From positions 2,170,001 through 2,234,000 of the forward strand of contig NZ_JACCCJ010000001.1 in the NCBI RefSeq assembly GCF_013410105.1: DNA of 64,000 nt. The letters run 5' to 3'. The stretch comes from Sphingopyxis sp. JAI108. Lineage in GTDB: Bacteria; Pseudomonadota; Alphaproteobacteria; Sphingomonadales; Sphingomonadaceae. Below are positions 7,079 to 25,259 of this stretch, one piece after another; the first letter of the stretch is position 1; each line of letters opens with the position of its first letter. Made by a program: the position numbers and the translations under genes. The notes below the pieces were generated by a model. The model was not told the origin of the DNA and searched no databases. It saw only the letters and a list, made by a program, of their open reading frames with translations.

Positions 7079-7923
7079 GTCCGGTCCCCGCGGATCGGCG
7101 CGGTGCGCTCGATGCGGACGGCCTTCGCCCGCTTGCCCGCACCGAGCCGGAGTTCGCTACGTTCGAACAGGCGGTCGACGATCAGATATCGTCCGCGGAC
7201 GCGGTAATTGACGAGCTCTGCCTGTTTCGATGCGCCGATCACGAAGAGCGGCGGCATTTCCGACGTCGCAACATCCGCGCCGAATTCGATGAAGACTTGC
7301 CGCCCGTCGTCGAAGGCTCGAACCGGCCGCCAGGCCGTGCGGTCGCCCGATATCCGGTAACGGAAATCGAGCGACGCGAGTTGGATGCTGTCGGCGACGG
7401 GCGCGGCGGCATCGGCTGCCGCGGCCGCTTTTTCGAGCGCGATAAGCTCGTCCGCCGGATAGGTCCAGGATACCGACGCCATCCACGCTGCCGCCGTCGC
7501 GCGAAGCTCGACATGATAGGTCCGCCTGTCGGTGTTGATGACGAGGTTCGTGGAAATGTCGGATCGCGTTGGTTTCACGAGCAAATGAACGCGGCGCTTC
7601 GCGCCTGCTCCGCTCACCGTGTCCCCGATGATCCAGCGGACCGTGTCGCCGGAGGCGACCGGACCGGGACCCACGAGCTGCTCTCCCTCCTGTAGCACGA
7701 TGTCGGTGACCTGACCGGGCGCGGCATAGACCTGATAGAGTGCGCCATCACTCCAGGGATATTGCTGGATGGCGTTGCGGAAGCCCTGCCGATCGGGCTG
7801 TACCCGCGCTTCCGAATTGGCGCGCCCGATCCGGACCTTCGGATCGGCGGGCTCGCCGGCGATCGCGGTGGGGGCGAGCAACGAGAGCAATATGCCGAAC
7901 GGCACGAGGGGGAGTTTTGTCAT
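7075..7923 (-). CDS. trbG: TrbG, VirB9-like conjugation channel protein
   Basis: A 282-residue VirB9 homologue that forms the outer part of the mating-channel core with TrbI. A signal peptide is evident (VPFGILLSLLAPTAIAGEP). The N-terminal domain has YPWSDGALYQVYAAPGQVTDI, followed by TNLVINTDRRTYHVEL. The C-terminal VirB9 domain reads RYRISGDRTAWRPVRAFDDG and ends in the beta-rich GRYLIVDRLFERSELRLG. Its start overlaps the trbF stop and its stop overlaps trbI, so the chain is tightly coupled. Confidence 0.95.
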   Translation of the reverse strand: MTKLPLVPFGILLSLLAPTAIAGEPADPKVRIGRANSEARVQPDRQGFRNAIQQYPWSDGALYQVYAAPGQVTDIVLQEGEQLVGPGPVASGDTVRWIIGDTVSGAGAKRRVHLLVKPTRSDISTNLVINTDRRTYHVELRATAAAWMASVSWTYPADELIALEKAAAAADAAAPVADSIQLASLDFRYRISGDRTAWRPVRAFDDGRQVFIEFGADVATSEMPPLFVIGASKQAELVNYRVRGRYLIVDRLFERSELRLGAGKRAKAVRIERTAPIRGDRT

Positions 7924-8603
7924 TGGCTGAGTTCCTTCGACCAGTTGAGCGCGGAGACGAAGACGCCGAGCGGGTTCTTCCGGAGGGCATCGGGGGTGCG
8001 TGGCGGCTGGATCGTGACCGTCACGATCGCGGACCAGCGCGAGGTTTCGAGAAGACTGCCGTCCTGATAGCGGCGCTCGGTCCAGGCGATGCGGAAGCTG
8101 TCCTTCGACGCTCGGATGACGCTCGACACGTCGACGGCGACCTGCTGCTTGCCGATCAGCGCAAAGGGATCGTTCGAGCGCGCATAATCATTCAGCGCCT
8201 GCGTGCCGCTCGTCGTCGTGAAGTCGTAAGCGCTCAGCCAGTCCTTGCGCAGCACCACTGGGTCGGCGGGGATCGAGCGGACGTGCTCGATGAAGCGGGC
8301 GAGGTGGAAGGCGATCTGTGGATCGGTCGGCGAGAACTCGCCATCGGCGGGCGCGACCGCCCTCGCCTCGCCCAGCTTGTCGACCTCGACCACCCAGGGC
8401 GTCACGGTCCCGCGCGCCGACTGCCAGACCAGCGCCGAGGCCAGCCCTCCTGAAAGGCACAGACAGCCGAAGAAGGCGAGCCGCCAGTTCTTCGCCTGGA
8501 CACGCGCGGAGCCGATCCGATCGTCCCAGACCTGCGCGGCGCGCTGAAAAGGCGTTACCGGCTCGGGGCTCTTGCCATAATGATTGCTGGGTCGTCGGAA
8601 CAT
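7920..8603 (-). CDS. trbF: TrbF, VirB8-like inner-membrane conjugation protein
   Basis: A 227-residue VirB8-like protein that helps assemble the inner-membrane complex. The start MFRRPSNHYGKSPEPVTPFQ at 8603 is chosen because TrbF homologues begin this way; the frame is open 87 bases further upstream, inside trbL. One membrane helix (LAFFGCLCLSGGLASALVWQ) precedes a periplasmic NTF2-like domain (TPWVVEVDKLGEARAV through TVTIQPPRTPDALRKNPLG). It lies four bases downstream of trbL. Confidence 0.95.
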   Translation of the reverse strand: MFRRPSNHYGKSPEPVTPFQRAAQVWDDRIGSARVQAKNWRLAFFGCLCLSGGLASALVWQSARGTVTPWVVEVDKLGEARAVAPADGEFSPTDPQIAFHLARFIEHVRSIPADPVVLRKDWLSAYDFTTTSGTQALNDYARSNDPFALIGKQQVAVDVSSVIRASKDSFRIAWTERRYQDGSLLETSRWSAIVTVTIQPPRTPDALRKNPLGVFVSALNWSKELSQ

Positions 8604-8607
8604 CGTC

Positions 8608-9888
8608 TCAGTCCTTCTGGCTAATGTCGGGAGCGGAACCGGCGCCATGGCTGTCGCCGGCCTTGAGGGTCTGCGATGCGATCGTCGCACCGGAGGTGAC
8701 CGCCTGGCGCCGCTTCATCGCGGCCGCCCAGGCTGGCGGTCCGTCGGCCGCTGCGCCTGCAGCAGGCGCGGCCGCGGCACCTGCCCGGCCTTCCTCGAAA
8801 TTCTCGCGCATCTTGCTGCCCGCGGAGCGTAAGGGAGAGCTGGCGCCGCTCGCCGCATCGCGCGCGACGTTCGCGAGACCCGCGCCGAACGCCCGCATTC
8901 CGCTCTTTCCGGCTGCGCCCCGGGCATAGGAGGCCGACGCGCCGCCCGCGGCGCGGGAGGCGCCGAGTGCCGTCCGGCCGAGCGCGCTGCTCGCAGCTCC
9001 GGCCGCGAGCGTGGCGCCGGCGGCGCCCGCTGCCAAGGTTGCGCCGGCGGCAACCGTCGTCCCCGCCGCGGCGCCGGCTCCGAGCTGAGGCCCGCCCGCC
9101 ACGATGCCATTCGCGACGCTCGGACCGAAGATGCCGAGCCCGAGCAGCGTCAGCGCGCCGAGCGCGATCGCCATGACCTGGCGAATGTCGGGCTCGGTGC
9201 CGAGCCCCGCATCCATGAAGCGCTGGAACAGCGTCGTGCCGATGCCGGTGATGACGGCGAGCACGAGCAATTTGATGCCCGAGGAGATGATGTGCCCGAG
9301 AACCCGCTCGGCCATGAAGGCGGTCCGGCCAAAGAAGGCGAAGGGAATGAGGACGAAGCCCGCAAGGGTCACGAGCTTGAATTCGAGGATCGTGACGAAA
9401 ATCTGCACCGCGAGGATGAAGAAGGCGAGCACGACGATCACCCAGGCGATCAGCAGGATCATGATCTGGACGAAGTTGGTGAAGAGGCCGACGGGTCCAA
9501 CGAGATCGGCCGACGCGTCGAGGAGCGGCTGCGCCGCGTCGAGCCCGGTCGCCGCGACCATGCCCGGGCGCATGAAGTCGCCGACCGCCATCGCCCCGCC
9601 GCTCGCCTTCAGACCAAGCCCCGCGAAGCTTTCGAGCATGATAACGGCGAGCGCCTGGAAGTTGCCGATTATGAAAGCGAATACACCGATGTAGAGCGTC
9701 TTCTTCACGAGCCGCTGCAGCACATCCTCGTCGGTCCCCCACGCCCAGAAGAGCGCCGCGATCGTCACGTCGATCACGATCAGCGTCGAGGAAAGGAAGC
9801 CGACCTCGCCGCCAAGCAGGCCGAAGCCGCTGTCGATATAGGTCGAGAAGACCGACAGGAAATTGTCGATGACGCCGGTGTCGTTCAT
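8608..9888 (-). CDS. trbL: TrbL, VirB6-like polytopic conjugation protein
   Basis: A 426-residue polytopic inner-membrane protein that contributes to the DNA path through the inner membrane. Several hydrophobic helices are clear (LIVIDVTIAALFWAWG, IGVFAFIIGNFQALAVIML, ILLIAWVIVVLAFFILAVQI, LLVLAVITGIGTTLF). The C-terminal third is a low-complexity Ala/Gly tail, usual for TrbL and likely disordered. Start ATG 9888 overlaps the stop of the small upstream gene (ATGA). The frame is open 60 bases further, but that extension would cover the neighbour. Confidence 0.94.
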   Translation of the reverse strand: MNDTGVIDNFLSVFSTYIDSGFGLLGGEVGFLSSTLIVIDVTIAALFWAWGTDEDVLQRLVKKTLYIGVFAFIIGNFQALAVIMLESFAGLGLKASGGAMAVGDFMRPGMVAATGLDAAQPLLDASADLVGPVGLFTNFVQIMILLIAWVIVVLAFFILAVQIFVTILEFKLVTLAGFVLIPFAFFGRTAFMAERVLGHIISSGIKLLVLAVITGIGTTLFQRFMDAGLGTEPDIRQVMAIALGALTLLGLGIFGPSVANGIVAGGPQLGAGAAAGTTVAAGATLAAGAAGATLAAGAASSALGRTALGASRAAGGASASYARGAAGKSGMRAFGAGLANVARDAASGASSPLRSAGSKMRENFEEGRAGAAAAPAAGAAADGPPAWAAAMKRRQAVTSGATIASQTLKAGDSHGAGSAPDISQKD

Positions 9889-10136
9889 GATGCGTCCTTG
9901 TCCGAACCGAAGAAGTGACGCCGCTTCGCCTCCCAGGCCGCCGTGCACTCGGGATCGGCGGTGGTGATCGTGCGGCAGCTGCGGAGAATGTCCTCGCGCG
10001 ATGGAGGTGCGTCCGCTCCGGAGATCGGGGGAGCGGACGCACCGGGCGCGGGCGGGTCGAGCGCAGCGACGAGCAACAGGGTCAGCGCGAACCCTGCAAG
10101 GATGGCGCCCAACGCCAGCCGGCCCACCCGGCCCAT
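9885..10136 (-). CDS. Putative entry-exclusion protein, TrbK-alt type
   Basis: An 83-residue protein with an N-terminal membrane anchor (LALGAILAGFALTLLLVAAL) and a short periplasmic region holding a two-cysteine pattern (RSCRTITTADPECTAAW) followed by an Arg/Phe-rich end. This pattern and the position between trbJ and trbL match the 'TrbK-alt' putative entry-exclusion family. By analogy with TrbK it may prevent redundant transfer between cells carrying the same element, which is inference. Start ATG 10136 gives the normal family length. Confidence 0.8.
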   Translation of the reverse strand: MGRVGRLALGAILAGFALTLLLVAALDPPAPGASAPPISGADAPPSREDILRSCRTITTADPECTAAWEAKRRHFFGSDKDAS

Positions 10137-10137
10137 C

Positions 10138-10848
10138 TCAATTGCCGCCGCGGAACCGGCGGAAGCGCTCGCGGCCCTCGGCCTCGGCTGCCGCACTCCG
10201 CGCTGCGTCGAGCATCTGGGCACGGCCCTGCGCCGCGACCACCGCGGCGAGGTCGGCGAGCTGGCGCGCTTGCACGGCGAGGATCTGATTGCCCGCCTGC
10301 GCGACCTGCAGCGCGCCGGTCGCCGACTGGCTGGCGCCGACGAGGATGCCGAGCGACTGCTTCGTGCCGCCGATATTGCCGACGATCCCTGCCTGGACCT
10401 TCATCGCGTCCTCGAACGCGGCAACGCTGTCCTGCCAGCGCGCGTCGGCATTGGCGACCATCGCGGCCTGCGGCCCAGTGAGCGCCGCGCCCTTGTAGCG
10501 GGCACCGAAGCTCGCCTTGATGTCGGTGACATCATAGGCGATGCGCTGCGCCTCGCCGAGCAGCGCGCGCGTCTCTTCGACCTGCGCCTGCAGCTCGCCC
10601 AGCGTCGAGACCGGCAGGCTGGTGAGGTTGCGCGCCTCGTTCATCAGCGAGGTCGCCTGGTTCTGGAGCTGCTTGATCTGGTTGTTGATCTGCTCGAGCG
10701 TGCGCGCGGCGGTGAGGATATTCTGCGAATAGTTGCGCGGATCGTGGACGATGCCGCCCACCTGCGCCTGCGCCGGCGCGGCAACCATCGCAGCGGGAAG
10801 CGCGGCGCCGACGAAAAGCAGCGACGCGGTAAGAACGGGGTATTTCAT
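10138..10848 (-). CDS. trbJ: TrbJ, VirB5-like conjugation protein
   Basis: A 236-residue secreted protein that corresponds to VirB5, a minor pilus component. A signal peptide ends at AAPAQAQ near residue 29. The mature part is almost entirely helical (LTAARTLEQINNQIKQLQNQ, RNLTSLPVSTLGELQAQV, ALQVAQAGNQILAVQARQ) and ends in an Ala/Glu/Arg-rich coiled coil. The start overlaps the trbE stop by four bases. The frame runs on upstream, but only as the antisense or shifted frame of trbE. Confidence 0.95.
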   Translation of the reverse strand: MKYPVLTASLLFVGAALPAAMVAAPAQAQVGGIVHDPRNYSQNILTAARTLEQINNQIKQLQNQATSLMNEARNLTSLPVSTLGELQAQVEETRALLGEAQRIAYDVTDIKASFGARYKGAALTGPQAAMVANADARWQDSVAAFEDAMKVQAGIVGNIGGTKQSLGILVGASQSATGALQVAQAGNQILAVQARQLADLAAVVAAQGRAQMLDAARSAAAEAEGRERFRRFRGGN

Positions 10849-13289
10849 GCGGGGGACTCCTCGGGGTTCGGGGCGGACTGGTCGGGAAGCAGCTCGGCCG
10901 CCCATTCGAGCTTTCGGTGGTGAAGCCAGGCCGCGGCGAAGCCGGCAGCGCCATGCGCTTCGAAGAGCTCGCCGATGCAGATCTGGTCGGCCTTCGAGGA
11001 GGCGGCCGTGAAGGCGAGCGCGATCTCGCCGAGGCCGAGTTCGAAGAGCCGGTTGCCGCGGCGGGTCTGGCAATAATAGTCGCGCTTCGGCGCCGCTCTT
11101 CCCAATATCTCGATCTGCCGGTCGTTGAGACCGAAGCGTTCGTAGATGCGGGCGATCTGGGGCTCGGTGGCGCGCTCGTTGGGGAGGAATATCCGGGTCG
11201 GACAGCTCTCGATGATCGCGGGGGCAATATTCGAGGTCTCGATGTCGGCAAGGCTCTGGGTCGCGAAGACGACGCTCGCATTCTTCTTGCGGAGCGTTTT
11301 CAGCCATTCGCGCAGCTGCGCCGCGAACGCCGGGCTGTCGAGCACCAGCCAGCCCTCGTCGATAATGATGAGGGTGGGCGATCCGTCGAGGCGGCCTGCG
11401 ACGCGGTGGAACAGATAGGAGAGCACGGGCCCCGCCGACCCGGCACCGACCAGGCCCTCGGTCTCGAACGCCTGCACGCGGGCGCTGCCGAGCCTTTCCA
11501 CGTCGGCATCGAGAAGGCGGCCCCAAGGCCCCCCGATGCAAAAGGGTGCAAGCGCCAGCTTCAGCGGGTGCGATTGCAATAGGACCGCGAGTCCGGTCAG
11601 CGTGCGTTCGCCGACGGGCGCGGTCGCGAGCGAGGTCAGCGCCGACCAGATATGCTCCTTCGCCGCGGGATCGATCGCCACTCCCTCGCCCTTCAGCAGC
11701 GCCGCGAGCCATTCGGCGGCCCAGCTGCGCTCGGCGGGCTCGTCGATCCGCGCGAGCGGCTGAAGCGCGACGCTGCCTTCGCCCCCGTCGAGCGCGCCGC
11801 CGAGATCCTGCCAGTCGCCGCCCATCGCGAGCGCCGCCGCGCGGATCGAGCCGCCGAAGTCGAAAGCGAAGATCTGCGCGCCGGGGTAGCGCCGGAACTG
11901 CAATGCCATGGCGGCGAGCAGCACCGATTTGCCGGCGCCGGTCGGGCCGACGACGAGGCAGTGCCCGACGTCGCCGACATGCAATGCGAAGCGGAACGGG
12001 GTCGAGCCTTCGGTCTTGCCGTAAAGCAAGGGGGCATCACCGAAATGCTCGTCCCGTTCCGCCCCCGCCCACACCGCGGAGAGGGGAATGATGTGGGCGA
12101 GGTTGAGGGTCGAAATCGGCGGTTGGCGGACGTTCGCATAGACATGGCCCGGCAGGCTGCCGAGCCAGGCCTCGATCGCGTTCATGCCTTCCGCCGTGCA
12201 GGTGAAATCGCGGCCCTGGATAATCTTCTCGGCGAGGCGGAGCTTCTCCGCCGCGATCCCGGCATCGCGGTCCCAGACGGTGAGCGTCGTCGTGACATAG
12301 GCGACGCCCGCCTCGTCGGCGCCGAGCTCCTGCAGCGCGAGATCCGCGTCGGCCGCCTTGTTCGACGCGTCGCTGTCCATGAGGACCGACTGCTCGTTGG
12401 TCATGACCTCTTTCAGAATCGCCGCGATCGATTTGCGCTTCGCGAACCATTGCCGCCGGATCCGCGTCAGCAGTTTCGCGGCGTCGGTCTTGTCGAGCAT
12501 GATTGCGCGCGTCGACCAGCGGTAGGCGAAGGCCTGCGCATTGAGATCGTCGAGGATCCCCGGCCAAGTCGCGCTCGGAAAGCCCGAGATGGTGAGCGTG
12601 CGGATATGATGCGCGCCGAGCCGCGGCTCGAGACCGCCCGCAAGCGGTTCGTCGGCGAGCAAGGCGTCGAGATAGACGGGGGTCTCGGGGACGCGGGCCT
12701 TCTGGCGCCGCGTCGACACCGTCGAATGGAGATAGGTCAGCGTTTCGGCGTCGGTGAGCCATGCCGCCTCGGGCACGAAACCCTCGACCAGCTGGAGAAG
12801 CCGGCCCGACCGGTCGACGAAGCTCTTCAGATGATCGCGCGGATCGACCCCGTCGCCCGCCATGCCCTCGTAAAGCCAGCGCTCGGCGCGCGACACCTCT
12901 TCGGCGGGCGGCATCCACAGCAGGGTGAGGAAATAGAAGCTCTCGAAATGCGCGCCTTCCTCGCGAAACTGTTCGCGGCGTTCGAGGTCGACGAGCGCCG
13001 AGACCGGGTCGGGGAAGACCGATTGGGGATAATCGCTCGCTGCTATGCGCTGCGCCTCGACGAACACGGCCCAGCCCGAGCCGAGGCGCCGCAGCGCGCC
13101 ATTGAGCCGCGCGGTGACCGAGACCAGTTCGGCGGGCGTCGCGCTTTCAAGGTCGGGTCCGCGAAAGCGCGCGGTGCGCTGCAGCGATCCATCCTTGTTG
13201 AGCACGACGCCCTCCGCCACGAGCGCGGCCCAGGGCAGGAAATCGGCAAGGCAGGCGGACTTCGAGCGATATTCGGCAAGGTTCATCAT
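10845..13289 (-). CDS. trbE: TrbE, VirB4-family conjugation ATPase
   Basis: An 814-residue cytoplasmic ATPase that powers pilus biogenesis and substrate transfer. The N-terminal CagE/TrbE/VirB domain is followed by the motor domain: Walker A VGPTGAGKSVLL near residue 447, Walker B LIIIDEGWLVL near 639, and the C-terminal ATQSLADIETSNIAPAIIES segment typical of VirB4 proteins. Length matches the family. The start lies four bases inside the trbD stop. The first two codons are both ATG, so the true start may be 13286. Confidence 0.96.
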   Translation of the reverse strand: MMNLAEYRSKSACLADFLPWAALVAEGVVLNKDGSLQRTARFRGPDLESATPAELVSVTARLNGALRRLGSGWAVFVEAQRIAASDYPQSVFPDPVSALVDLERREQFREEGAHFESFYFLTLLWMPPAEEVSRAERWLYEGMAGDGVDPRDHLKSFVDRSGRLLQLVEGFVPEAAWLTDAETLTYLHSTVSTRRQKARVPETPVYLDALLADEPLAGGLEPRLGAHHIRTLTISGFPSATWPGILDDLNAQAFAYRWSTRAIMLDKTDAAKLLTRIRRQWFAKRKSIAAILKEVMTNEQSVLMDSDASNKAADADLALQELGADEAGVAYVTTTLTVWDRDAGIAAEKLRLAEKIIQGRDFTCTAEGMNAIEAWLGSLPGHVYANVRQPPISTLNLAHIIPLSAVWAGAERDEHFGDAPLLYGKTEGSTPFRFALHVGDVGHCLVVGPTGAGKSVLLAAMALQFRRYPGAQIFAFDFGGSIRAAALAMGGDWQDLGGALDGGEGSVALQPLARIDEPAERSWAAEWLAALLKGEGVAIDPAAKEHIWSALTSLATAPVGERTLTGLAVLLQSHPLKLALAPFCIGGPWGRLLDADVERLGSARVQAFETEGLVGAGSAGPVLSYLFHRVAGRLDGSPTLIIIDEGWLVLDSPAFAAQLREWLKTLRKKNASVVFATQSLADIETSNIAPAIIESCPTRIFLPNERATEPQIARIYERFGLNDRQIEILGRAAPKRDYYCQTRRGNRLFELGLGEIALAFTAASSKADQICIGELFEAHGAAGFAAAWLHHRKLEWAAELLPDQSAPNPEESPA

Positions 13290-13555
13290 GGCCGCATCCA
13301 GACGGGATATTTGAGGTGACGCCGGGCAACATCGAAGAACTGCGGGTCGCGCCGCGCCGCCCAGACCGAAAGCGCGTGGCCGATCGCCCAGATCGCGAGC
13401 CCCGCGAGCCAGAGCCTGAGGCCAAGCCCGATCGCGCCGGCGAGCGTGCCATTGACGATTGCGAGGCTGCGCGGCGCGCCGCCGAGCAGGATAGGCTCGG
13501 CCAGCGCCCGGTGGACCGGAGCGAAGAAGCCCGGCACCTCCCCTTCCCGGCTCAT
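13286..13555 (-). CDS. trbD: TrbD, VirB3-like inner-membrane protein
   Basis: An 89-residue VirB3 homologue. It begins MSREGEVPGFFAPVHRALAE and has the family element GAPRSLAIVNGTLAGAIGL. Two adjacent membrane helices follow (IVNGTLAGAIGLGLRLWLAG and AIWAIGHALSVWA), then the conserved DPQFFDVARRHLKYPVWMRP. Start ATG 13555 overlaps the trbC stop in the arrangement TGATG. VirB3 proteins partner with the VirB4 ATPase, here TrbE, which is encoded directly after it. Confidence 0.94.
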   Translation of the reverse strand: MSREGEVPGFFAPVHRALAEPILLGGAPRSLAIVNGTLAGAIGLGLRLWLAGLAIWAIGHALSVWAARRDPQFFDVARRHLKYPVWMRP

Positions 13556-13887
13556 CAGACGAGCGCTCCGCCGCCGAAGGAGAAGAAGGAAAGGAAGAAG
13601 CTCGAGGCGGCGAAGGCGATCGACAGGCCGAACACGATCTGCACGAGCCGGCGAAAGCCGCCCGACGTGTCGCCGAAGGCGAGGCTGAGTCCGGTGACGA
13701 TGATGATGATCACCGCGACGATCTTCGCGACCGGACCCTCGATGCTTTCGAGGATCGACTGGAGGGGTGCTTCCCACGGCATCGACGAGCCGCCGGCGGC
13801 GGCGGGCGTCGCTACCGTGAGGGCCACGACGACGGCAGTTGAGGCACACGCCATACGGCGTGCGGCACAGGCAGCGACTTTGATCAT
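13555..13887 (-). CDS. trbC: TrbC, pilin subunit (VirB2-like)
   Basis: A 110-residue prepilin. A long N-terminal signal sequence (residues 1-~35, cleavage near AAAGGS) precedes two hydrophobic helices (AKIVAVIIIIVTGLSLAFGD and IVFGLSIAFAASSFFLSFF) typical of VirB2/TrbC pilins. Start ATG 13887 has a strong ribosome site, AAGGAGA six bases upstream. The mature pilin would be about 75 residues and may be cyclised as in RP4 TrbC. A TraF-type protease is encoded at 22860-23450, which supports that idea. Confidence 0.93.
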   Translation of the reverse strand: MIKVAACAARRMACASTAVVVALTVATPAAAGGSSMPWEAPLQSILESIEGPVAKIVAVIIIIVTGLSLAFGDTSGGFRRLVQIVFGLSIAFAASSFFLSFFSFGGGALV

Positions 13888-13889
13888 GA

Positions 13890-14864
13890 CTATTCTCCTT
13901 CGCGGGGTCTGAGGGTTGTGAGGCGATATTCGCCGGTCGCAGGATCGAGCCCCGACACCCGGCAAAGCTCGGCGAGGCGCCTCCCGGCGCCGTCGCGCAC
14001 GAGCACGGCGACGAGGCCGATCGTCTCGGCGAGCAGCGCGCGCGGGACAGTGACGACGGCTTCCTGGATCAGCTGTTCCATCCGGCGCAGCGCCCCGAGC
14101 GCCGAGCCCGCATGGATCGTGCCGATCCCGCCGGGATGGCCGGTGCCCCAGGCTTTCAGGAGGTCGAGCGCCTCGGCGCCGCGCACCTCACCGATAGGGA
14201 TTCGATCGGGCCGCAGCCGGAGCGAGGAACGGACGAGGTCCGAGAGCGAGGCCACGCCGTCCTTGGTCCGCATCGCGACCAGATTGGGCGACGCGCACTG
14301 GAGCTCGCGCGTATCTTCGATGAGGACGATGCGATCGGAGGATTTTGCCACCTCGGCGAGCAGCGCGTTGGTAAGCGTCGTCTTGCCGGTGCCGGTGCCA
14401 CCGGCGACGAGGATATTGGCGCGGTCGGCCACGGCCCGGCGGAGCGCCTCGGCATCGGCTGCAAGCATGATCCCGGCGGAAACATAATCGGCGAGCGTGA
14501 AGATCGCGACGGCGGGCTTGCGAATCGCGAAAGCCGGGGCCGCGACGACAGGCGGAAGCAGGCCTTCGAAGCGCTCGCCGGTTTCGGGCAGCTCGGCCGA
14601 AACGCGCGGTGCACCGGAATGAACCTCCACGCCCACATGATGCGCCACGAGCCTGATGATGCGCTCGCCATCGGCTGGCGCGAGGAGGACGCCGCTATCG
14701 GCAAGACCGGCGCCGAGCCGGTCCACCCACAGGCGACCATCGGGATTGAGCATGACCTCGATGACCGCAGGGTCGGCGAGCCATTCGGCTATCGCCCCGC
14801 CGAGCGCGGTGCGCAGCATCCTCGCGCTGCGTCCCTCCCCTTCGTTTCGATCGTTCGCGCCCAT
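13890..14864 (-). CDS. trbB: TrbB, VirB11-family secretion ATPase
   Basis: A 324-residue hexameric ATPase of the VirB11 class and the first gene of the trb operon. The N-terminal domain has [16 protein letters not shown]. The motor domain holds Walker [16 protein letters not shown] near residue 148, the Asp box ([12 protein letters not shown]), and the Walker B/His region ([19 protein letters not shown] and [13 protein letters not shown]). ATG 14864 is preferred; the frame is open about 100 bases further upstream with atypical sequence. Transcription probably starts in the 218-base divergent gap upstream. Confidence 0.95.
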
Positions 14865-15082
14865 TGGGACCCCGCCTGCTCGTCCGGGCAACGGCGCCCG
14901 GCTCGACGGGGACGAGTAAGAGACGCAGAAATATCCGCCTCGCAACAGGCATTTGACCGCTTCCAACTCGGTCGGGCAATTACCAGCTCGGTCAAAGTCA
15001 ACTTTGCTCGCGGGCCCGCCCGCCGGCCCGCGACTCAGCCGTCAATGCTTGCGCCGAGGCTCATTTTGACAAGAGTGTAAGA
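14865..15082. promoter_or_regulatory. Divergent regulatory region between the trb operon and the LuxR-type regulator
   Basis: This gap must carry the promoters for trb (leftward) and for the regulator (rightward). Three palindromic or repeated elements are visible: CAAAGT-CA-ACTTTG at 14993-15006; CGCGGGCC with its complement GGCCCGCG at 15009-15016 and 15025-15032; and CTCGGTC occurring twice about 21 bases apart just before the first palindrome. They are plausible operator sites for the adjacent HTH protein. No specific binding protein can be assigned from sequence. Confidence 0.5.
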
Positions 15083-17437: not shown

Positions 17438-17853
17438 GCTTCGCCCGGCAGGTCGCGCGACAGCTCTGAACCGAACCGCGGCCCCGCCTCCATCCGCCGG
17501 GCAAGGGCATCGACAAAGGATTCCCACCGCCTCTTGCCGTTCGCCTGCGCCGCGGAAAGCGCGGCTTCGGGAAGCGACGGGCTGCTCGTGAGCCAGTGCC
17601 GGACGAACAGCGCGAGCGTCTCGGCGCCAAGTTCGCCCTGCCATTCGATGCGGTCGAGCTGGCGCGCGATCCGGTCGAGCCTTCGCGTCACCATCGCCTC
17701 GATCCGTTCTTCGTGATCGGGGGTAAGAAGCGATGCGAGCGCCGCTTCGACCACCTCGGTACGCGTCAGTCGTCGCTGCCGCGCGCGCTCGGCGACGAGC
17801 TCGACGAGCGCCGCATCAAGCCGGTAGGTCTGCTTGACCGTCCCGCCCCTCAA
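17413..17853 (-). CDS. Small DNA-binding/accessory protein coupled to traG (CopG-like)
   Basis: A 146-residue protein with an N-terminal ribbon-helix-helix-like segment (VKQTYRLDAALVELVAERA, then RRLTRTEVVEAALASLL). A helical region rich in Arg and Glu follows (IEAMVTRRLDRIARQLDRI) and then a C-terminal helical domain. The apparent start is TTG 17853, overlapping the traG stop (TTGA); no ATG or GTG lies near the conserved N-terminus. A CopG-like protein directly after traG is common in these modules and may act as a relaxosome accessory factor or regulator, which is inference. Confidence 0.7.
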   Translation of the reverse strand: MRGGTVKQTYRLDAALVELVAERARQRRLTRTEVVEAALASLLTPDHEERIEAMVTRRLDRIARQLDRIEWQGELGAETLALFVRHWLTSSPSLPEAALSAAQANGKRRWESFVDALARRMEAGPRFGSELSRDLPGEAQTSPAPK

Positions 17854-19823
17854 AGCTCGATCCCGTCGTCGGGATCGAGCGAGGCCGCACGCGCACACCG
17901 CGCCATACGCCGGTCCGCCGCGCTGCGAAGCCAGGCGGCATCGCCTTGCACATCCTCTTCGCCGAAGTCGAACTCACCGATCGCGGGTGGCGGCGGCGGG
18001 GCGATATCCTCGTGGAGCGGGAGATCGGGCTCCTGCCGAATGCCGCCATTGGCCGCGCCATCGTCGGCGAGTGCGTCTTCCGCGCAGGCGACTGATTGAG
18101 CAGCAATCACCGGATCGTTCCATTCGTCGGGGCGCGCTGCCGATGGCGGAGCAACGGCAGGCGGCGGTAACAGCCGGCGCATGAATCGCCGGTCGGTATA
18201 ATATCGCGCCTTGCCGGCCCGGATCGGCGGCAACCCGGATGCCATGACGATCTCCTCGTCGCTTGGAAGCTGCATAACCTCGCCTGGCGTCAACAAGGCT
18301 CGCGCGGTCTCGGTGCGCGACACCATGAGGTGTCCGAGCCAGGGCGAGAGGCGGTGGCCGGCATAATTCTTCATCGCCCGCTGTTCGGTAGCAGTGCCGA
18401 GCGCATCGGAAATCCGCTTCGCGGTCCGCTCGTCGTTCGTCGCGAAGCTCACCCGGACATGGCAATTGTCGAGAATGGCATTGCTCTGCCCATAGGCCTT
18501 TTCGATCTGGTTCAGCGACTGCGCGATGAGAAAGGCCTTGATGCCGTAGCCCGCCATGAAAGCGAGCGCGCTCTCGAAGAAATCGAGACGCCCAAGCGCC
18601 GGAAACTCGTCGAGCATCAGCAGCAGGCGCCGTTCGCGTGTCGGCGGGTTCAATTCCTCCGTCAGCCGCCGCCCGATCTGGTTGAGGATGAGGCGGATGA
18701 GTGGCTTGGTCCGGCTGATGTCGCCCGGCGGGACCACGAGATAAAGCGACACGGGCGCTGCGCCGCCGACAAGGTCGGTGATCCGCCAGTCCGAGCGGCC
18801 GGTCACGGCGGCGATCACCGGATCGCGGTAAAGGCCGAGAAAGGACATGGCGGTCGACAGCACGCCCGAGCGTTCATTCTCGCTCTTGTTGAGAAGCTCC
18901 TGCGCGGCCGCCGCGACGACGGGATGCGGCGCCGACCCAAGATGCCGCGCCGTCTTCATCCGGTGCAGCGTCGCCTCGATCGGGCGTCGCGGATCCGACA
19001 GGAAGGCCGCGACCCCGGCAAGCGTCTTGTTCTCTTCGGCATAAAGGACATGAAGGATGGCGCCGACGAGCAGCGCGTGGCTCGTCTTCTCCCAGTGGTT
19101 GCGCTTCTCGAGACTGCCTTCGGGATCGACGAGGACATCGGCGACATTCTGCACGTCGCGCACTTCCCATTCGCCGCGCCGGACTTCGAGCAGCGGATTA
19201 TAGGCCGCGGAGCGCGAATTGGTCGGATCGAACAGCAGCACACGGCCGTGCCGGGCGCGGAAGCCTGCGGTCAGTTGCCAATTCTCGCCCTTGATGTCGT
19301 GGACGATGCAGCTCCCGGGCCAGGTGAGAAGCGTCGGGATGACGAGACCCACCCCCTTTCCCGATCGCGTCGGCGCGAAGCAGAGCACATGCTCGGCGCC
19401 ATCGTGGCGCAGATAACGCCCGGCAAGGCGCCCCAGGATGACGCCCTGCTCGCCTAGCATATTCGCCTTGCGGATCTCGCGCACGCTCGCCCAGCGCGCC
19501 GAGCCATAGGTCTCGGCGCGCCTTCGCTCGCGCGCGCGCCACACCGAGAGGCCGATCGCCATAATGATCGAGAGAAAGCCGCCCGATGCGGCGATTGCCG
19601 CGCCGCGGTAGAAGATCGGCGGCGCATAGGCGTCATAGGCAAACCACCACCAGAAGAAGGCGGGCGGCGGATAGACGGGATAGCCACGAAGATGGAACCA
19701 TGGCGGCCCGAGCGCGGCCTGATAGCCGAGCGCGCCCGCGGTCCATTGCGTGGCGCCCCAGACGCCTGCGGTCACGATCGCGAGAATGAGGAGGACCTGC
19801 CCCCAGAGGATCTTGTCGTTCAT
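17850..19823 (-). CDS. traG: TraG, VirD4-type conjugation coupling protein
   Basis: A 657-residue coupling ATPase that links the relaxosome to the type IV channel. Two N-terminal membrane helices (VLLILAIVTAGVWGATQW and SGGFLSIIMAIGLSVW) flank a Pro/aromatic periplasmic loop. The ATPase domain has Walker A APTRSGKGVG near residue 149, HDIKGENWQL, and Walker B LLLMLDEFPALG near 401. An acidic tail ends the protein. The gap to the relaxase gene upstream is only 12 bases, so relaxase, traG and the CopG-like gene are likely co-transcribed. Confidence 0.96.
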   Translation of the reverse strand: MNDKILWGQVLLILAIVTAGVWGATQWTAGALGYQAALGPPWFHLRGYPVYPPPAFFWWWFAYDAYAPPIFYRGAAIAASGGFLSIIMAIGLSVWRARERRRAETYGSARWASVREIRKANMLGEQGVILGRLAGRYLRHDGAEHVLCFAPTRSGKGVGLVIPTLLTWPGSCIVHDIKGENWQLTAGFRARHGRVLLFDPTNSRSAAYNPLLEVRRGEWEVRDVQNVADVLVDPEGSLEKRNHWEKTSHALLVGAILHVLYAEENKTLAGVAAFLSDPRRPIEATLHRMKTARHLGSAPHPVVAAAAQELLNKSENERSGVLSTAMSFLGLYRDPVIAAVTGRSDWRITDLVGGAAPVSLYLVVPPGDISRTKPLIRLILNQIGRRLTEELNPPTRERRLLLMLDEFPALGRLDFFESALAFMAGYGIKAFLIAQSLNQIEKAYGQSNAILDNCHVRVSFATNDERTAKRISDALGTATEQRAMKNYAGHRLSPWLGHLMVSRTETARALLTPGEVMQLPSDEEIVMASGLPPIRAGKARYYTDRRFMRRLLPPPAVAPPSAARPDEWNDPVIAAQSVACAEDALADDGAANGGIRQEPDLPLHEDIAPPPPPAIGEFDFGEEDVQGDAAWLRSAADRRMARCARAASLDPDDGIEL

Positions 19824-19835: not shown

Positions 19836-21581
19836 TCAGATACCAAGTCCGCGACCGCGCCCAAGCGACCAGTCGATGCCGCTGGCGCCGTTCACCGATC
19901 CTGCAAGATGCTTGCCGAGATGCCGATCGAGCGCGGGTCGCCAGGGCACGAGCTGGAAGCCGAGGCCATCGTCGATCATCGCGAAGCGGCCCGACGCGAG
20001 GGTGACGCGCTCGCGGTAGATGCCGCCGACCGCCTCGCCCGGAGCGGCGGCGCGATGCGAAAGGCCGGTTCGCGCCGCGATCGCCGCAGCCGCCTCGCCA
20101 AGCTCGCGCCGGCGCAGCGTGTCGATTAGGCCGGGCGCAGGAACGAGCCTGCCTCCGGTCCGGCGGAGCAGGCCTTCGCCCTCGAGCCATTCCGATCGTG
20201 CGTCCATCGCCCGCCCGACCTCGGCCCCAAAGCCCGCGGCGGCGACGTTCTTGTCGCCGCCGACGATCCGGCGGTCGAGCCAGGTCGCTCCCCCCGCAGA
20301 GATTTGCGCAGCGAGCGGCAGGTCCGAGCGGACGGCCAGCGACGTCCGCTCCGTGCCGTCGCGTCCCTCCCAGCGGCGGAGCTCGACGATCGCGCCGGGC
20401 GCCGCGTCGCCTGTCCATTCGAGATCGGCGAAGCGGATATGATGGGTGCGCCCGTCGATGCCGTCGACAATCGCGAAGGCAGTGCCGGCGAGTTCGTCGT
20501 CGAGCCCTCGCGCGACGAGCCGGCCCGTTAGGGACACGGCGCTCCCGCCATCGTCGATCGCGATCGCGCCCGCATCGAACGCGAGGCGCTGGCCGACCAT
20601 TTCGCGGTGGATGCGCTTGATGATGTCGCCGCGCGCTGCAAGGCCGCGCAGTACGGTTTCGGCACCCGGATCGATGATGAAGAGGCCCCGACCGACGCGC
20701 GAGGCCAGTCCCATCCTCTCGAGCACATCGGCGCGTCCGACGAGGTGCCGGTCGCTTCCAGGAGCACCCGCCGCGGGACGAAGATCGACCGTCCCCGTCG
20801 CATCGGCGCGCGCGCGGAGCGCCGCGTCGAGACCCGTCCAGCGTTCGGCATCGACTTCGCGCGCGTGCGCGGTATCGATGGCCCGTTCGGTGCGCGGCCC
20901 GAGTTCGAGCGTCGCGATCTCGGACGCCCGGCCGCGTATGCCTTCCGCGACATAGGCGCGGTCGATGACGAGGTCGGCGCCGTCCGCGTCTACGCCGCGG
21001 ACGAGGATATGGATGTGCGGATTGTCGGTGTTCCAATGATCGACCGCCACCCAGTCGAGCGGGGTTCCGAGATCGGCTTCGAGCTGCCGCATGAGATCCC
21101 GCGTATAGGTGCTGAGGTCGCCGAGCTCGGCTGCATCCTCGGGACTGACGATGAACCGGAAATGGTGCCGGTCGTCCGCGCAGCGCTCGGTAAAGGCGGC
21201 GCGATCGGCATCGTCGCCGCGGGCATCGAACATCGAGGCCGCGCGCCCGTCGCGCGTCACGCCGTCGCGCTCGAGATAGGCGACATGGCGTCCGAGCGGC
21301 GCGGCACGAAAGCGGGGCCCCTTATGGCGTACAATCCGCGCCATGACGGTCACGCGCCGCATGGAAGGGCCGCGGCGGATCGCCGCCAGCGCCAGTCTGC
21401 CGCGGCCGTGACGCCCCGTGCCCCCGCTGCGGCGGCCGCCGGGACGCGAGCGGGTATAGCCCGACCGCGCGGCCGCGCGCTTCACCTGCGCGGCGAGCTT
21501 CTTGGCGCGCCGCCCCGATCCCGCACCGGCATCGCGTCCCCGTCCCGGCCGCACCCGGAAATCATGCTCGTCGCGGCTCAT
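19836..21581 (-). CDS. rlxS: RlxS-like relaxase/mobilisation nuclease (DUF3363 type)
   Basis: A 581-residue conjugative relaxase expected to nick oriT and lead the transferred strand. The N-terminal 75 residues are very basic. The nuclease domain includes HVAYLERDGV, the region THHFRF-like (DDRHHFRFIVSP), and the His motif HWNTDNPHIHILVRG with metal-binding His near residues 188-190. The C-terminal half is the DUF3363 region typical of RlxS proteins. ATG 21581 is chosen because the upstream extension runs through the oriT candidate. The gene lies directly upstream of traG, as in ICEMlSym-type elements. Confidence 0.93.
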   Translation of the reverse strand: MSRDEHDFRVRPGRGRDAGAGSGRRAKKLAAQVKRAAARSGYTRSRPGGRRSGGTGRHGRGRLALAAIRRGPSMRRVTVMARIVRHKGPRFRAAPLGRHVAYLERDGVTRDGRAASMFDARGDDADRAAFTERCADDRHHFRFIVSPEDAAELGDLSTYTRDLMRQLEADLGTPLDWVAVDHWNTDNPHIHILVRGVDADGADLVIDRAYVAEGIRGRASEIATLELGPRTERAIDTAHAREVDAERWTGLDAALRARADATGTVDLRPAAGAPGSDRHLVGRADVLERMGLASRVGRGLFIIDPGAETVLRGLAARGDIIKRIHREMVGQRLAFDAGAIAIDDGGSAVSLTGRLVARGLDDELAGTAFAIVDGIDGRTHHIRFADLEWTGDAAPGAIVELRRWEGRDGTERTSLAVRSDLPLAAQISAGGATWLDRRIVGGDKNVAAAGFGAEVGRAMDARSEWLEGEGLLRRTGGRLVPAPGLIDTLRRRELGEAAAAIAARTGLSHRAAAPGEAVGGIYRERVTLASGRFAMIDDGLGFQLVPWRPALDRHLGKHLAGSVNGASGIDWSLGRGRGLGI

Positions 21582-21675
21582 GAGGCGTGAGCCTGACGAT
21601 ATCCACCTGAAATCACACGATAAAGATGCCGAGCGTATGGCTCGCCCAAGGGGATGCCGTACAAGAAAACCCTGC

Positions 21676-21723
21676 AAGACCAACCACATACCGCCAGCAA
21701 GCTGGCAGGTCTTTTATCTTGCC
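21676..21723 (+). other. oriT: Candidate origin of transfer (oriT) with an IncP-like nick site
   Basis: In the 223-base gap upstream of the relaxase gene, a perfect hairpin GCCAGC-AA-GCTGGC (21693-21698 and 21701-21706) is nested inside AAGACC / GGTCTT (21676-21681 and 21708-21713). Eight bases beyond the hairpin is TATCTTGCC (21715-21723), close to the IncP nick consensus YATCCTG/Y. In RP4 an inverted repeat also precedes the nick at a similar distance. The predicted cut is between G21721 and C21722 on the + strand. This orientation would transfer the relaxase gene last, the usual arrangement. Confidence 0.65.
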
Positions 21724-21804: not shown

Positions 21805-22527
21805 TCATTGGTCGCGACCGGAAAGCGGTACGAAGAGCGGCGACGGATGCCGCACGGGCGGAGACGGCGGTGCGTCGGCCACGCGGTCGCCGCGCAGCGG
21901 AGCTGCAGCGGCGGCGGAGTCCGGGATGCGCTCAGGCTGCTGCGCAAAGAGCGAAGCGTCGCGCCAGGAGGGCACCGGGCGTGTCGGCGCGGGAGCAAGC
22001 GAAGCGACGCTCGAGGCGCCGATCGCCGGCGCGATCGCGGCGACATAAGCGACGGTTTCAGCGGGCAGGCCCCGCCGTCCCGCCGCATAGGCGTCGGCGC
22101 GGCCGGGTCCGGCATTATAACCGGCGAGCATCAGGCGGACGTCGCCATAGCGGTCCCACATGGCGCGCAGATAGGCCGCGCCGGCGAAGATATTGGCGCG
22201 GACATCGAACGGGTCGGAACCGAGGCGATGGCGCGCGGTCAGCATCGCCCAGGTCGCGGGCATGACCTGCATCAGCCCCATCGCGCCGGCGTGCGAGACC
22301 GCGCGCGGATCGCCGCGGCTCTCGACATGCATCACGCGCCATATCCAGGCCTCGGGTATGCCGAAGCGCAGCGAGGCTTCCGCAACGGGGCCTGCATAGG
22401 CGGCAGCGCCAGGCGAAGCCGGCGCAGCCGCCGCGCCGTGGGCGAGATGCATCTGCGCAGCGAGCAGCAGCAGGACGGCGGCGATGCGGGCGGCGCGGAA
22501 GCGCGCCGAGCGAGCCGAATGACGCAC
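21805..22527 (-). CDS. Lytic transglycosylase (TrbN/VirB1-like)
   Basis: A 240-residue periplasmic muramidase that would open peptidoglycan for the mating channel. A signal peptide (RIAAVLLLLAAQMHLAHGAAAA) is followed by an SLT domain with the catalytic Glu in RVMHVESRGDPRAVSHAGAM, then GLMQVMPATW and MLAGYNAGPGRADAY. The C-terminal 70 residues are Pro/Ala-rich and likely disordered. It belongs to the leftward traF-DUF736 operon and is separated from the DUF736 gene by three bases. Confidence 0.93.
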   Translation of the reverse strand: MRHSARSARFRAARIAAVLLLLAAQMHLAHGAAAAPASPGAAAYAGPVAEASLRFGIPEAWIWRVMHVESRGDPRAVSHAGAMGLMQVMPATWAMLTARHRLGSDPFDVRANIFAGAAYLRAMWDRYGDVRLMLAGYNAGPGRADAYAAGRRGLPAETVAYVAAIAPAIGASSVASLAPAPTRPVPSWRDASLFAQQPERIPDSAAAAAPLRGDRVADAPPSPPVRHPSPLFVPLSGRDQ

Positions 22528-22530: not shown

Positions 22531-22863
22531 TCAGGCCTTGGATTGCGGAGTGGGCCGCGACCAGAGAAGATGATAGTCGTCCTCGCTCGTCCCCGAACGA
22601 AGGAGATTGGCGCGGATCGGAGCGCCGAGCGCCGGATCGTCGATCTGCAGCGCGATGTAGGATCCGGCGCGCTCGCTGCGCCGTTCCCAGCCGGCACCGA
22701 TTTCGGTGCCGGTATCGGCTTCAACGAGCAGGACTCGCCACGCCGGCGCATTTTCGGCGTCCGACGGCCGCGCGGGAACGATTGCGATCATCGCGTCGAG
22801 CGTGAGGGTGCGGATCTGGCCGGCGTAGCCGTCGTCGGCGGTCTGGAAGCTGCCAATAATCAT
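22531..22863 (-). CDS. DUF736 domain protein (copy 1)
   Basis: A 110-residue DUF736 protein. The family pattern is visible: an N-terminal IGSFQTADDGYAGQIRTLTL, a central WRVLLVEADTGTEIGAGWER, and YIALQIDDPALGAPIRANL near the C-terminus. DUF736 genes occur in multiple copies in proteobacterial integrative elements; their molecular role is not established. The start overlaps the traF stop by four bases. It is the most divergent of the three copies in this window (others at 25323 and 27422). Confidence 0.9.
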   Translation of the reverse strand: MIIGSFQTADDGYAGQIRTLTLDAMIAIVPARPSDAENAPAWRVLLVEADTGTEIGAGWERRSERAGSYIALQIDDPALGAPIRANLLRSGTSEDDYHLLWSRPTPQSKA

Positions 22864-23450
22864 ATCGTCGGTTCCTTTGCCTGGGGGTTGAAGGCATGCG
22901 TGGGATCGCCCCGGCGCCAGCGCAGCGGCGCGCCGGGCGCATCGCGCGTGAGCAGCGGATGCGCGGTGCCGATGAGGCTCTCGGCGCGAAGCGCCCCGAA
23001 ATAGCGGCCGTCGAAACTGTCGGGCGCCGAGCCCAGGAGGAGATATTCGCCGCGTGCGAGGCGGCGGCAGCCGAGCCAGCGCGGAAGCGCGCGGCCGAGC
23101 CGATCCGCCGCGCGGGCGCGTGCCCCGAAGCGGCCGTCGACCGTCACGAATACCCCGCTCCGGCAGACGAGCGCACCCTCGGCCGCGGCGACATGCTTCA
23201 GCAGCGGAACGCCGCGCGGCAGGTAGCCGCGTCCGGCGAGCAGCGCAGCGAGGGGCGCGGGCGGCTCGACAAGAACGAGGTCACCGAGTCGCGGCGTGGC
23301 GCCGACATCGATGCGGTAGAGGCCGAGCGGAACGCTGGCGCTCGCATTCCAGACGAGGCGCGGCTGCGGCGCGAGCGCAGCGACCGCGCCGAACAGACCG
23401 GCGAAGCCAGCGGCCGCGAAGGCGGTCGCGCGAAGCCAGCGCCGCCTCAC
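22860..23450 (-). CDS. traF: TraF, S26-family conjugative pilin peptidase
   Basis: A 196-residue protein of the S26 signal-peptidase family. In RP4, TraF processes and cyclises the TrbC pilin. An N-terminal helix (ATAFAAAGFAGLFGAVAAL) anchors it. The catalytic Ser is expected in NASASVPLGLYRID near residue 37 and the Lys in LLKHVAAAEG. The C-terminal EYLLLGSAPDSFDGRYFG matches signal-peptidase box E. The start is GTG 23450, overlapping the DUF2840 stop (GTGA). Its presence supports processing of the trbC pilin encoded at 13555-13887. Confidence 0.93.
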   Translation of the reverse strand: MRRRWLRATAFAAAGFAGLFGAVAALAPQPRLVWNASASVPLGLYRIDVGATPRLGDLVLVEPPAPLAALLAGRGYLPRGVPLLKHVAAAEGALVCRSGVFVTVDGRFGARARAADRLGRALPRWLGCRRLARGEYLLLGSAPDSFDGRYFGALRAESLIGTAHPLLTRDAPGAPLRWRRGDPTHAFNPQAKEPTI

Positions 23451-23992
23451 AGCCCGAGCGCCTGTCGCTGCAGCCAGGCCTTGTGCCGGGCGTCCCCATA
23501 GGGACGGAACGGCAGGCCGGCGGCGAGCTGGCTGCCGATGTGGCGCCAATGATCGGGCGCGACATCGCACGGATCGACGCCCGCCGCCTCGATCGCATCG
23601 ATCGCGGCGAGCACCTGCTGGACTTTCGGCCAGCCGTCGATCCGCAGGAGCAGGTCGCCGCCCGGACGCACATAGGGGTGCGTCGCGAACGGCGCTCCCG
23701 GCACCGCCGCGGCGATGACCGCGATGCTCGAATGCACCGTGCCATAATCGTTGGAGGTCCAGCGCACGAACGCAAAAACCGCGCCAGGACGAAAGGCGTC
23801 GACCCTCGTCCGGCGGCTCACGATCCGCGTCCCCGCGACGCGGCCGAAGCGGATCCACTGCTCAAGCCGCTGCTCGATCCACGTCAGCTCGACTTCGGTC
23901 AGTCCGCTCGCCGGCGACACCGCAGTAGGCAGCGGCACGCTGCCACCTTCGCTCGCCGCATGCGCGGCCATGGTATGCGCGGCGCGCATCAT
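23447..23992 (-). CDS. DUF2840 domain protein
   Basis: A 181-residue protein of the DUF2840 family, which regularly sits between an excisionase-like gene and traF in these elements. Recognisable segments are LTWIEQRLEQWIRFGRVAGT, AVFAFVRWTSNDYGTVHSSI and HPYVRPGGDLLLRIDGWPKV. The function is unknown. ATG 23992 overlaps the stop of the upstream HTH gene (ATGA), and the stop overlaps the traF start. All genes from 24249 leftward through the transglycosylase are therefore coupled or nearly so. Confidence 0.88.
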   Translation of the reverse strand: MMRAAHTMAAHAASEGGSVPLPTAVSPASGLTEVELTWIEQRLEQWIRFGRVAGTRIVSRRTRVDAFRPGAVFAFVRWTSNDYGTVHSSIAVIAAAVPGAPFATHPYVRPGGDLLLRIDGWPKVQQVLAAIDAIEAAGVDPCDVAPDHWRHIGSQLAAGLPFRPYGDARHKAWLQRQALGL

Positions 23993-24249
23993 CGCCGCAC
24001 CGGCGGCCGGCGGCGGAGCGGCGTGATGCCCCCCACGGTCGGCTCCTTCGTCGAGCGCGTGCGCCCGGTCGCGGCCCATTCGTCGAGATCGGCAAAGGTA
24101 TAGACGATCCGCCGCCCAAGCTTGTGAAAGCGCGGGCCGGTCCCATAGCAGCGGTGCTTTTCAAGCGTTGCCGGCGAGACGCCAAGATGCAGCGCCGCAT
24201 CGGGGGTGCGCAGGTAGCGCGGCACAACGGGTTCGGGAATATCGCCCAA
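23989..24249 (-). CDS. AlpA/RdfS-like helix-turn-helix protein, putative recombination directionality factor
   Basis: An 86-residue protein with an excisionase-type winged helix (LRTPDAALHLGVSPATLEKH, FHKLGRRIVYTFADLDEWA) and a basic C-terminus. In ICEMlSymR7A, RdfS is an excisionase of this class whose gene precedes traF and is activated by FseA. The same order is seen here: an fseA-like gene, then this gene, DUF2840 and traF. The start is TTG 24249 with GGAGG about seven bases upstream. The RdfS role is inferred from context; no integrase gene is in the window. Confidence 0.75.
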   Translation of the reverse strand: MGDIPEPVVPRYLRTPDAALHLGVSPATLEKHRCYGTGPRFHKLGRRIVYTFADLDEWAATGRTRSTKEPTVGGITPLRRRPPVRR

Positions 24250-24369
24250 GATCAGCCTCCATCGGGGATCCGGAAGCTCGGTCGGGCTCCCGGAGAAGAG
24301 GCCGGGACAATTGGCGGCCGAAGCCGCGTCGCGGAACGGACAAACCGAGGAGGTGCCCGAATGTCCCGA

Positions 24370-25141
24370 TCAGGGCGCGAGCAGCTGGCGATATCCGCCG
24401 TCGCGCATCGCGATGGCAGCTCGCTGCCAGCGTCCGATGCGGCGGCGCTCGCTCGAGGCGTCCCACTCGGTCGCCGAATAGGCGGCCACCTCGCTAGCGA
24501 GAAGCGCGGCAGCCGCTTCGCGTGCCGACGCGCCGCCGGCCAGCGCGTCGAGGAGGCGCAGCCATTGGACGAGCCGCCAGCGCTCGCTTCGCCCCGGCGC
24601 CCCGGCGGGAGGCCAGCGCGCGCCGCGGCCGAGCGCCGCCTGCACGGCAGCGGCGACGGCGAGCCGCGCGGCCGCGCCGCGATCGGCCGGACAGAGATAG
24701 GCGAGCGGCTCGTTCGCCGCGCAGCGGCGAAGCTGGAGCCGGAGCCGCCTTCCCCGCTCGGTCAGGACGACATGCCAGTCGCCGCGTTCGAGATATTCGG
24801 CGGCGATCGGCGCGGCGGCAGCAAGCTCGCCGGGCCGCGCGCCGGCGAAGCCCGAGGGCGATGGCTCGGCGATCGCGACGAGCGAGCAGCCGGTGGGCCG
24901 CCAGAGCGCTGGCGCGGCGGCGGCCCCGAGATCAGGATCGGCGGCGAAAGACCAGCCCCCAGCGGGCGGCAAGGTCGTCAAGCCGCGCCGCCCTTGCGCT
25001 CGCGGGCGCCGCGCGCGCCGCCGCGAACGCCGAACGGTAGGCGGGGCTTCGGCGCAGGAATTCCTGCGCAAAATCGGCCCGGTCATATTTTTCGAATATT
25101 TTGGGAAAATATGGCGAACGCCACGAGACAGCCTGATCCAT
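24370..25141 (-). CDS. FseA-like transcriptional activator encoded in two frames (DUF6499 + DUF2285, +1 frameshift)
   Basis: Frame A starts at ATG 25141 after GGAGGTGG and encodes a DUF6499-like domain (SWRSPYFPKIFEKYDRADFA), stopping at 24932. Frame B encodes the DUF2285 domain (AADPDLGAAAAPALWRP onward) to 24370. The frames join at GTC-TTT-CGC, with TTT at 24949-24947. A +1 slip to TTC gives a continuous 256-residue product (...WGLVFAADPDL...). In ICEMlSymR7A, msi172/msi171 are fused by programmed +1 frameshifting into FseA, which activates rdfS. An rdfS-like gene follows here too. A disabling indel is the alternative. Confidence 0.8.
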
Positions 25142-25243
25142 TTCCACCTCCAACCCGAAAGATGAGGATTTGCGCGGCTTTGCGCCTTCTTGTCCTTGGT
25201 TCAATCGCGATGGTTAACGCCGCGCAAGCGATAATCGTAGCGC

Positions 25244-25259
25244 AGTTTCGCGTGAAACT
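25244..25259. promoter_or_regulatory. parS-like palindrome upstream of the fseA-like gene
   Basis: AGTTTCGCGTGAAACT is a 16-base palindrome-like site that matches the chromosomal parS consensus TGTTTCACGTGAAACA at 13 of 16 positions, including the GTTTC and GTGAAAC arms. It lies about 100 bases upstream of the fseA-like start and 64 bases beyond the end of the second DUF736 gene. It may bind ParB or a related KorB/Noc-type protein, or be an operator for an element regulator. No parA or parB gene is visible in the window. Confidence 0.45.

What the first reader, a model, noticed from the sequence alone, without database searches (positions are those of the whole stretch)
24370..25141. fseA-like activator gene split between two frames at a TTT-C slip site
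A DUF6499 frame and a DUF2285 frame overlap and join at GTC-TTT-CGC; a +1 slip of the Phe codon yields one 256-residue protein with a natural junction. In ICEMlSymR7A, msi172/msi171 are fused by programmed +1 frameshifting to FseA, the activator of rdfS. Here an rdfS-like gene lies directly downstream. The same control logic may operate in a sphingomonad element.
Basis: partly seen in the sequence, partly recalled or inferred. Interest (0 to 1): 0.75.

Follow-up and report, generated by a model that had tools for sequence, protein, structure and literature searches.

The report
Frameshifted activator of mobile-element transfer

Summary
Confirmed, but of a known kind. On the minus strand a DUF6499 frame (25141-24947) and a DUF2285 frame (24945-24370) meet at TGG GGG CTG GTC TTT-C GC; a +1 slip on TTT would give one 256-residue protein. 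The site is conserved: 36 of 37 named loci carry TGG GGG TTG GTY TTT CGC with a zero-frame stop 2-6 codons later. Of 72 DUF6499 loci in 149 family genomes, 54 are split at TTT-C, 14 single-frame, 4 other. In 16 of 36 close loci the second frame has no start codon upstream of the slip. The joined protein is predicted to fold as one RovC-like unit. An inverted repeat with nearly the published FseA-box layout follows the stop codon here and in 35 of the 37 loci, ahead of rdfS. Print already reports 4,709 FseA homologues, about 61% with the +1 site. Differences: fseA directly upstream of rdfS; no QseM-like gene found; no tyrosine integrase nearby on the contig, which ends 85 kb away on one side. 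Slip, binding and activation are untested.

The parts
24947..25141 (-). fseA part 1: zero frame, DUF6499 (PF20109), 65 aa up to the slip Phe; the unshifted product ends 4 codons later
24946..24961 (-). +1 slip site TGG GGG CTG GTC TTT-C: SD-like G run encoding WGL, TTT slip codon, skipped C at 24946
24370..24945 (-). fseA part 2: +1 frame, DUF2285 (PF10074), 191 aa + TGA
24338..24366 (-). candidate FseA box: GGACAT-N17-TTGTCC inverted repeat, three bases after the fseA stop and ahead of rdfS
23989..24249 (-). rdfS-like excisionase gene, HTH_17, TTG start inferred
23447..24079 (-). DUF2840 protein gene (longest ORF given; start not examined)
22860..23501 (-). TraF-like S26 peptidase gene (Pfam over cut-off; NCBIfam TraF_Ti below its cut-off)
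22531..22863 (-). DUF736 gene
21805..22527 (-). lytic transglycosylase (SLT) gene, in about the place msi107 has in R7A (correspondence inferred)
19836..21689 (-). RlxS-like relaxase gene (518 bits, below the NCBIfam cut-off of 850)
17850..19823 (-). traG/VirD4 coupling protein gene
5870..14966 (-). trb cluster: trbB, trbE, trbL, trbF (VirB8), trbG (CagX), trbI identified; trbC, trbD, trbJ not examined

Best explanation
An fseA-type activator gene of a conjugative module. Most ribosomes would read the DUF6499 frame and stop four codons past the slip. Some pause at the Shine-Dalgarno-like UGGGGG / UUU-C site, tRNA-Phe (anticodon GAA, recalled) re-pairs from UUU to the better-matched UUC, and translation goes on in +1, giving the joined DUF6499-DUF2285 activator. 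That activator would bind the inverted repeat just downstream and switch on rdfS and the traF...rlxS genes. Shown here: the frames, the conserved slip site, a confident predicted fold of the joined chain, the conserved repeat, the gene order. Inferred: the slip and its rate, DNA binding, activation.
For: Both domains far above cut-off. TTT-C at the slip position in 56 of 58 loci that are not single-frame against 1 of 14 single-frame loci (listing; test, related sequences counted separately). The WG glycine is GGG in 42 of 54 split genes against 141 of 870 other Gly codons in them. 36 of 37 named loci share the site. In 16 of 36 loci (window plus 35 relatives; the window is not among the 16) the +1 frame has no start codon between the preceding stop and the slip. 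AlphaFold2 of the joined protein from residue 13: pLDDT 93.3, pTM 0.90, block mean 96 at the junction; only PDB match at E<=0.001 is RovC 6xz5, E 2.4e-6. Inverted repeat in the window and 35 of 37 loci. An rdfS homologue within 1 kb downstream, same strand, at 35 of 72 loci.
Against: No expression or peptide data. TTT is not rare in these genes: 133 of 358 other Phe codons in the 54 split genes are TTT, though only 34 of 244 in 12 genes of the window. No downstream RNA structure beyond shuffles (z 0.29). No sigma-70-like promoter found in 24100-25400. The window's repeat has a 17 bp spacer against 16 in 34 of 36 loci (paper: 15 or 16). In 39 more diverse rdfS upstream regions an inverted repeat is only weakly above shuffles. 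No integrase was found near it, so rdfS may have no local partner.
Confidence: 0.93

Rival explanations
1. The DUF2285 frame is translated separately from its own start, giving two proteins rather than one.
For: The window's +1 frame has upstream start codons (TTG at -27, -36, -126; ATG at -141).
Against: 16 of 36 loci have no start upstream of the slip in that frame, although starts further inside the frame exist in most of them. The conserved stretch (F-A-x-D-P-D) begins at the slip. The joined chain is predicted to fold with high confidence.
Confidence: 0.04
2. A frameshift mutation or sequencing error: a decayed gene.
For: Two of 72 loci have the slip site but a broken or shortened +1 frame (L010, L028), so decay does occur in the family.
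Against: The same extra base at the same codon in 36 of 37 named loci and in 54 of 72 family loci with a long +1 frame; both domains score well above cut-off here.
Confidence: 0.02
3. The slip site works, but this copy sits in a relic: the module cannot excise because it has no integrase.
For: Nearest tyrosine integrase found on the contig is about 1.0 Mb away; the two serine recombinases found are on other contigs.
Against: The contig (2,280,051 bases) ends about 85 kb beyond fseA on the other side, so an integrase past the contig end is not excluded. TraG, TrbB and TrbE pass their NCBIfam cut-offs; TrbL, TrbF, TrbG, TrbI pass Pfam's. Element borders were not sought.
Confidence: 0.3

Closest known systems
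FseA (msi172/msi171) of ICEMlSymR7A, Mesorhizobium japonicum R7A
   Same: DUF6499 + DUF2285 in two frames joined by +1; WGL/UGGGGG beside the site; an FseA-box-like repeat ahead of rdfS; rdfS then TraF-like, transglycosylase and RlxS-like genes; trb genes
   Different: Here fseA lies directly upstream of rdfS, not behind traI2; no AHL receptor, QseM-like gene or integrase found at the locus; I did not see the R7A slip sequence itself
FseA homologue set of PMC10359603 (4,709 sequences, about 61% with the +1 site)
   Same: The sequence features described there: both domains, FLRR-type motif, +1 site with WGL
   Different: 17 bp spacer in the repeat; 'sphingo' does not occur in that paper's main text; whether this gene is in its data set was not checked
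RovC (Yersinia), PDB 6xz5
   Same: Overall fold (Foldseek E 2.4e-6, TM 0.58/0.65, rmsd 5.9)
   Different: 16% identity; described as an activator of type VI secretion genes (title in a reference list)

Membership tests
FseA | N-terminal DUF6499 with AWEFLRRN-like motif | tested here: met
   PF20109 60 bits; reads AQEFLRRS
FseA | C-terminal DUF2285 | tested here: met
   PF10074 68.6 bits
FseA | +1 frameshift site beside WGL encoded by UGGGGG (about 61% of homologues) | tested here: met
   sequence present and conserved; slippage itself not measured
FseA | FseA box (inverted hexamers, 15-16 bp spacer) ahead of rdfS, next to the -35 | tested here: inconclusive
   GGACAT-N17-TTGTCC here; 16 bp in 34 of 36 loci; hexamer letters of R7A not in the text seen; no promoter found
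FseA | Dimer that binds DNA and activates rdfS | not testable with these tools
   needs EMSA and reporter
R7A-type control circuit | QseM antiactivator (lone DUF2285) | tested here: inconclusive
   only one PF10074 match in the genome at E<=0.001, fseA itself; whether PF10074 would detect a divergent QseM was not tested
R7A-type control circuit | TraR/AHL receptor next to fseA | tested here: not met
   two PF03472 matches in the genome, C1:213778 and C3:281815, none in the window
ICE with IntS-type integrase | tyrosine integrase in the element | tested here: inconclusive
   no PF00589 match for about 1.0 Mb on one side and to the contig end, about 85 kb, on the other; element borders unknown

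The most novel reading that the evidence does not exclude
In this sphingomonad group the +1 slip may be the main or only post-transcriptional brake on transfer, with no QseM-type antiactivator, and fseA may act on the rdfS next to it; elsewhere in the family split and single-frame forms have replaced each other several times (the tree needs 6 changes, 5 forced by well-supported branches), so the family offers natural with/without comparisons.
Probability: 0.3. Interest if true: 0.4.

Novelty: new member of a known kind. Interest (0 to 1): 0.22.

Why it matters
It adds a well-supported sphingomonad clade to a known frameshift-controlled switch and gives a compact fseA-box-rdfS unit in which frameshift and box can be tested together. 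Repeated change between split and single-frame forms would let one ask what the slip is for. It also shows that database proteins of this clade hold only the DUF2285 half (81 of 82 found, the window's own included).

Tried and rejected
Separate start, decay and relic readings: see rivals. A downstream RNA stimulator was sought in 97 nt and not found. A sigma-70-like promoter was sought in 24100-25400 and not found. The inverted repeat was weak in shuffle tests over 39 rdfS upstream regions: with 6-base arms 1 of 39 individually at p<=0.05, mean 5.21 against 4.61 shuffled; with 8-base arms 0 of 39, 6.05 against 5.59 (the paired group tests were significant). A GACA/TGTC-like form at the same place is in 18 of 39 by my reading. 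The case for the repeat rests on the close relatives. One other place in the genome matches GGACAT...TGTCCG, with a shorter spacer; not followed. PLSDB plasmids gave no match to the DUF2285 half. The primary frameshift paper (PNAS 2015, recalled) is not held. The PDB sequence search found nothing useful. The Phe codon test is circular for the 54 split loci, which were defined by TTTC; the count not so defined is 56 of 58 against 1 of 14, read and typed into the test. The rdfS distances used the 52 best rdfS matches (E up to 4.8e-15), not the weaker rows. Set aside: L010, L028, L029 (TTT-T instead of TTT-C), L056 ('other'), L148 (no site), L149 (site present, longer +1 frame, no box). Close relatives are not independent: 36 sequences, 30 distinct, 11 clusters at 90%. 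On re-checking I corrected the integrase statement (the contig ends about 85 kb away on one side) and lowered the relic rival from 0.35 to 0.3.

Full report
WHAT IS THERE. On the minus strand an ATG at 25141, behind a GGAGG, opens a frame that encodes a DUF6499 domain up to a TTT codon at 24949-24947; a +1 step over C 24946 leads into a frame with a DUF2285 domain that ends in TGA at 24372-24370. The zero frame stops four codons after the TTT. The site reads TGG GGG CTG GTC TTT C GC. A pattern made from it occurs once in the window, with a mean of 0.01 in shuffles.

IS IT CONSERVED? PF20109 was found at 72 places in 45 of 149 genomes of the same family, the window's own included. All 72 were read: 54 are split at TTT-C with a long +1 frame, 14 are single-frame, 4 are other (two with TTT-C but a broken or shortened +1 frame, one with TTT-T, one without the site). 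So TTT-C stands at the position in 56 of 58 loci that are not single-frame and in 1 of 14 that are (Fisher p 2e-11; relatedness ignored). The glycine of WG is GGG in 42 of 54 split genes, against 141 of 870 Gly codons elsewhere in them, which fits selection on the SD-like run. TTT itself is not rare in these genes (133 of 358 other Phe codons). Among 37 named loci found with an alignment of DUF2285 halves, 36 have TGG GGG TTG GTY TTT CGC and a zero-frame stop 2-6 codons on; the 37th is a partial match without the site. In 16 of 36 loci (window plus 35 relatives, the window not among the 16) no start codon lies between the slip and the preceding stop in the +1 frame, so there the second half cannot begin upstream of the slip on its own.

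THE PROTEIN. With the joined query, 82 proteins were found (the window's own among them; the 7998 best candidates were scored); 81 carry PF10074 alone and one, at 37% identity, carries both domains. AlphaFold2 on the joined protein from residue 13 gives mean pLDDT 93.3 and pTM 0.90 with no dip at the junction; the only PDB match at E<=0.001 is RovC, the structure to which FseA was compared in print (passages).

SURROUNDINGS. Three bases after the fseA stop an inverted repeat GGACAT-N17-TTGTCC begins (24366-24338). It is kept in 35 of the 37 named loci; counting the window, 34 of 36 have a 16 bp spacer, and the window and L114 have 17. The published FseA box is two inverted hexamers 16 (or 15) bp apart ahead of rdfS (passages of PMC10359603). 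An rdfS-like gene follows, then DUF2840, TraF-like peptidase, DUF736, transglycosylase, RlxS-like relaxase, TraG and trb genes, close to the R7A order rdfS-traF-msi107, oriT, rlxS (passages of PMC11963761). An rdfS homologue lies within 1 kb downstream, same strand, at 35 of 72 DUF6499 loci.

WHAT IS KNOWN. PMC10359603 (passages, and its Discussion section read whole) reports 4,709 FseA homologues across proteobacteria, about 61% with the conserved +1 site, and discusses the UGGGGG run. PMC5009743 (one passage) and PMC5882170 (passages) describe the R7A frameshift. So the finding is a new member of a known kind. A search for sphingomonad-specific work (three of four terms, open-licence library) listed two papers, both on Mesorhizobium elements; that is not proof of absence.

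WHAT DIFFERS. In the genome the only PF10074 match is fseA itself, so no QseM-like gene was seen; a divergent one could be missed. Two AHL-receptor-type proteins exist but not in the window. On the contig no tyrosine integrase was found for about 1.0 Mb on one side and to the contig end, about 85 kb, on the other. fseA sits directly upstream of rdfS. A tree of 68 C-terminal pieces needs 6 changes between split and single-frame states (5 forced by well-supported branches; shuffled mean about 13); direction was not tested, and a few single-frame calls could be sequencing errors.

LIMITS. There are no expression, slip or binding data. Counts come from related sequences. The tRNA re-pairing argument is recalled, and the R7A slip sequence was not seen.

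Noticed in passing
717-4468: ABC exporter with C39 peptidase domain followed by an HlyD-type protein, a bacteriocin-export-like pair beside the trb genes
   Followed up: no
22531-22863, 25323-25643, 27422-27841: Three DUF736 genes in and around the module
   Followed up: no
28394-33635: ImuB-like (IMS domain) and DNA polymerase III alpha-type genes, a mutasome-like pair (name recalled), next to the module
   Followed up: no
15083-15601 and 16013-17437: Small LuxR/sigma-region-4-type protein and a RadC-domain protein between trbB and traG, on the opposite strand
   Followed up: no
L029: DUF6499/DUF2285 pair that would need a slip at TTT-T rather than TTT-C
   Followed up: partly
L019, L023, L065, L068, L069 and other single-frame loci: Single-frame forms scattered over the tree with different sequences at the junction
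   Followed up: partly
L152 (G000:C1:1416013-1416039): Second GGACAT...TGTCCG place in the genome, shorter spacer
   Followed up: no
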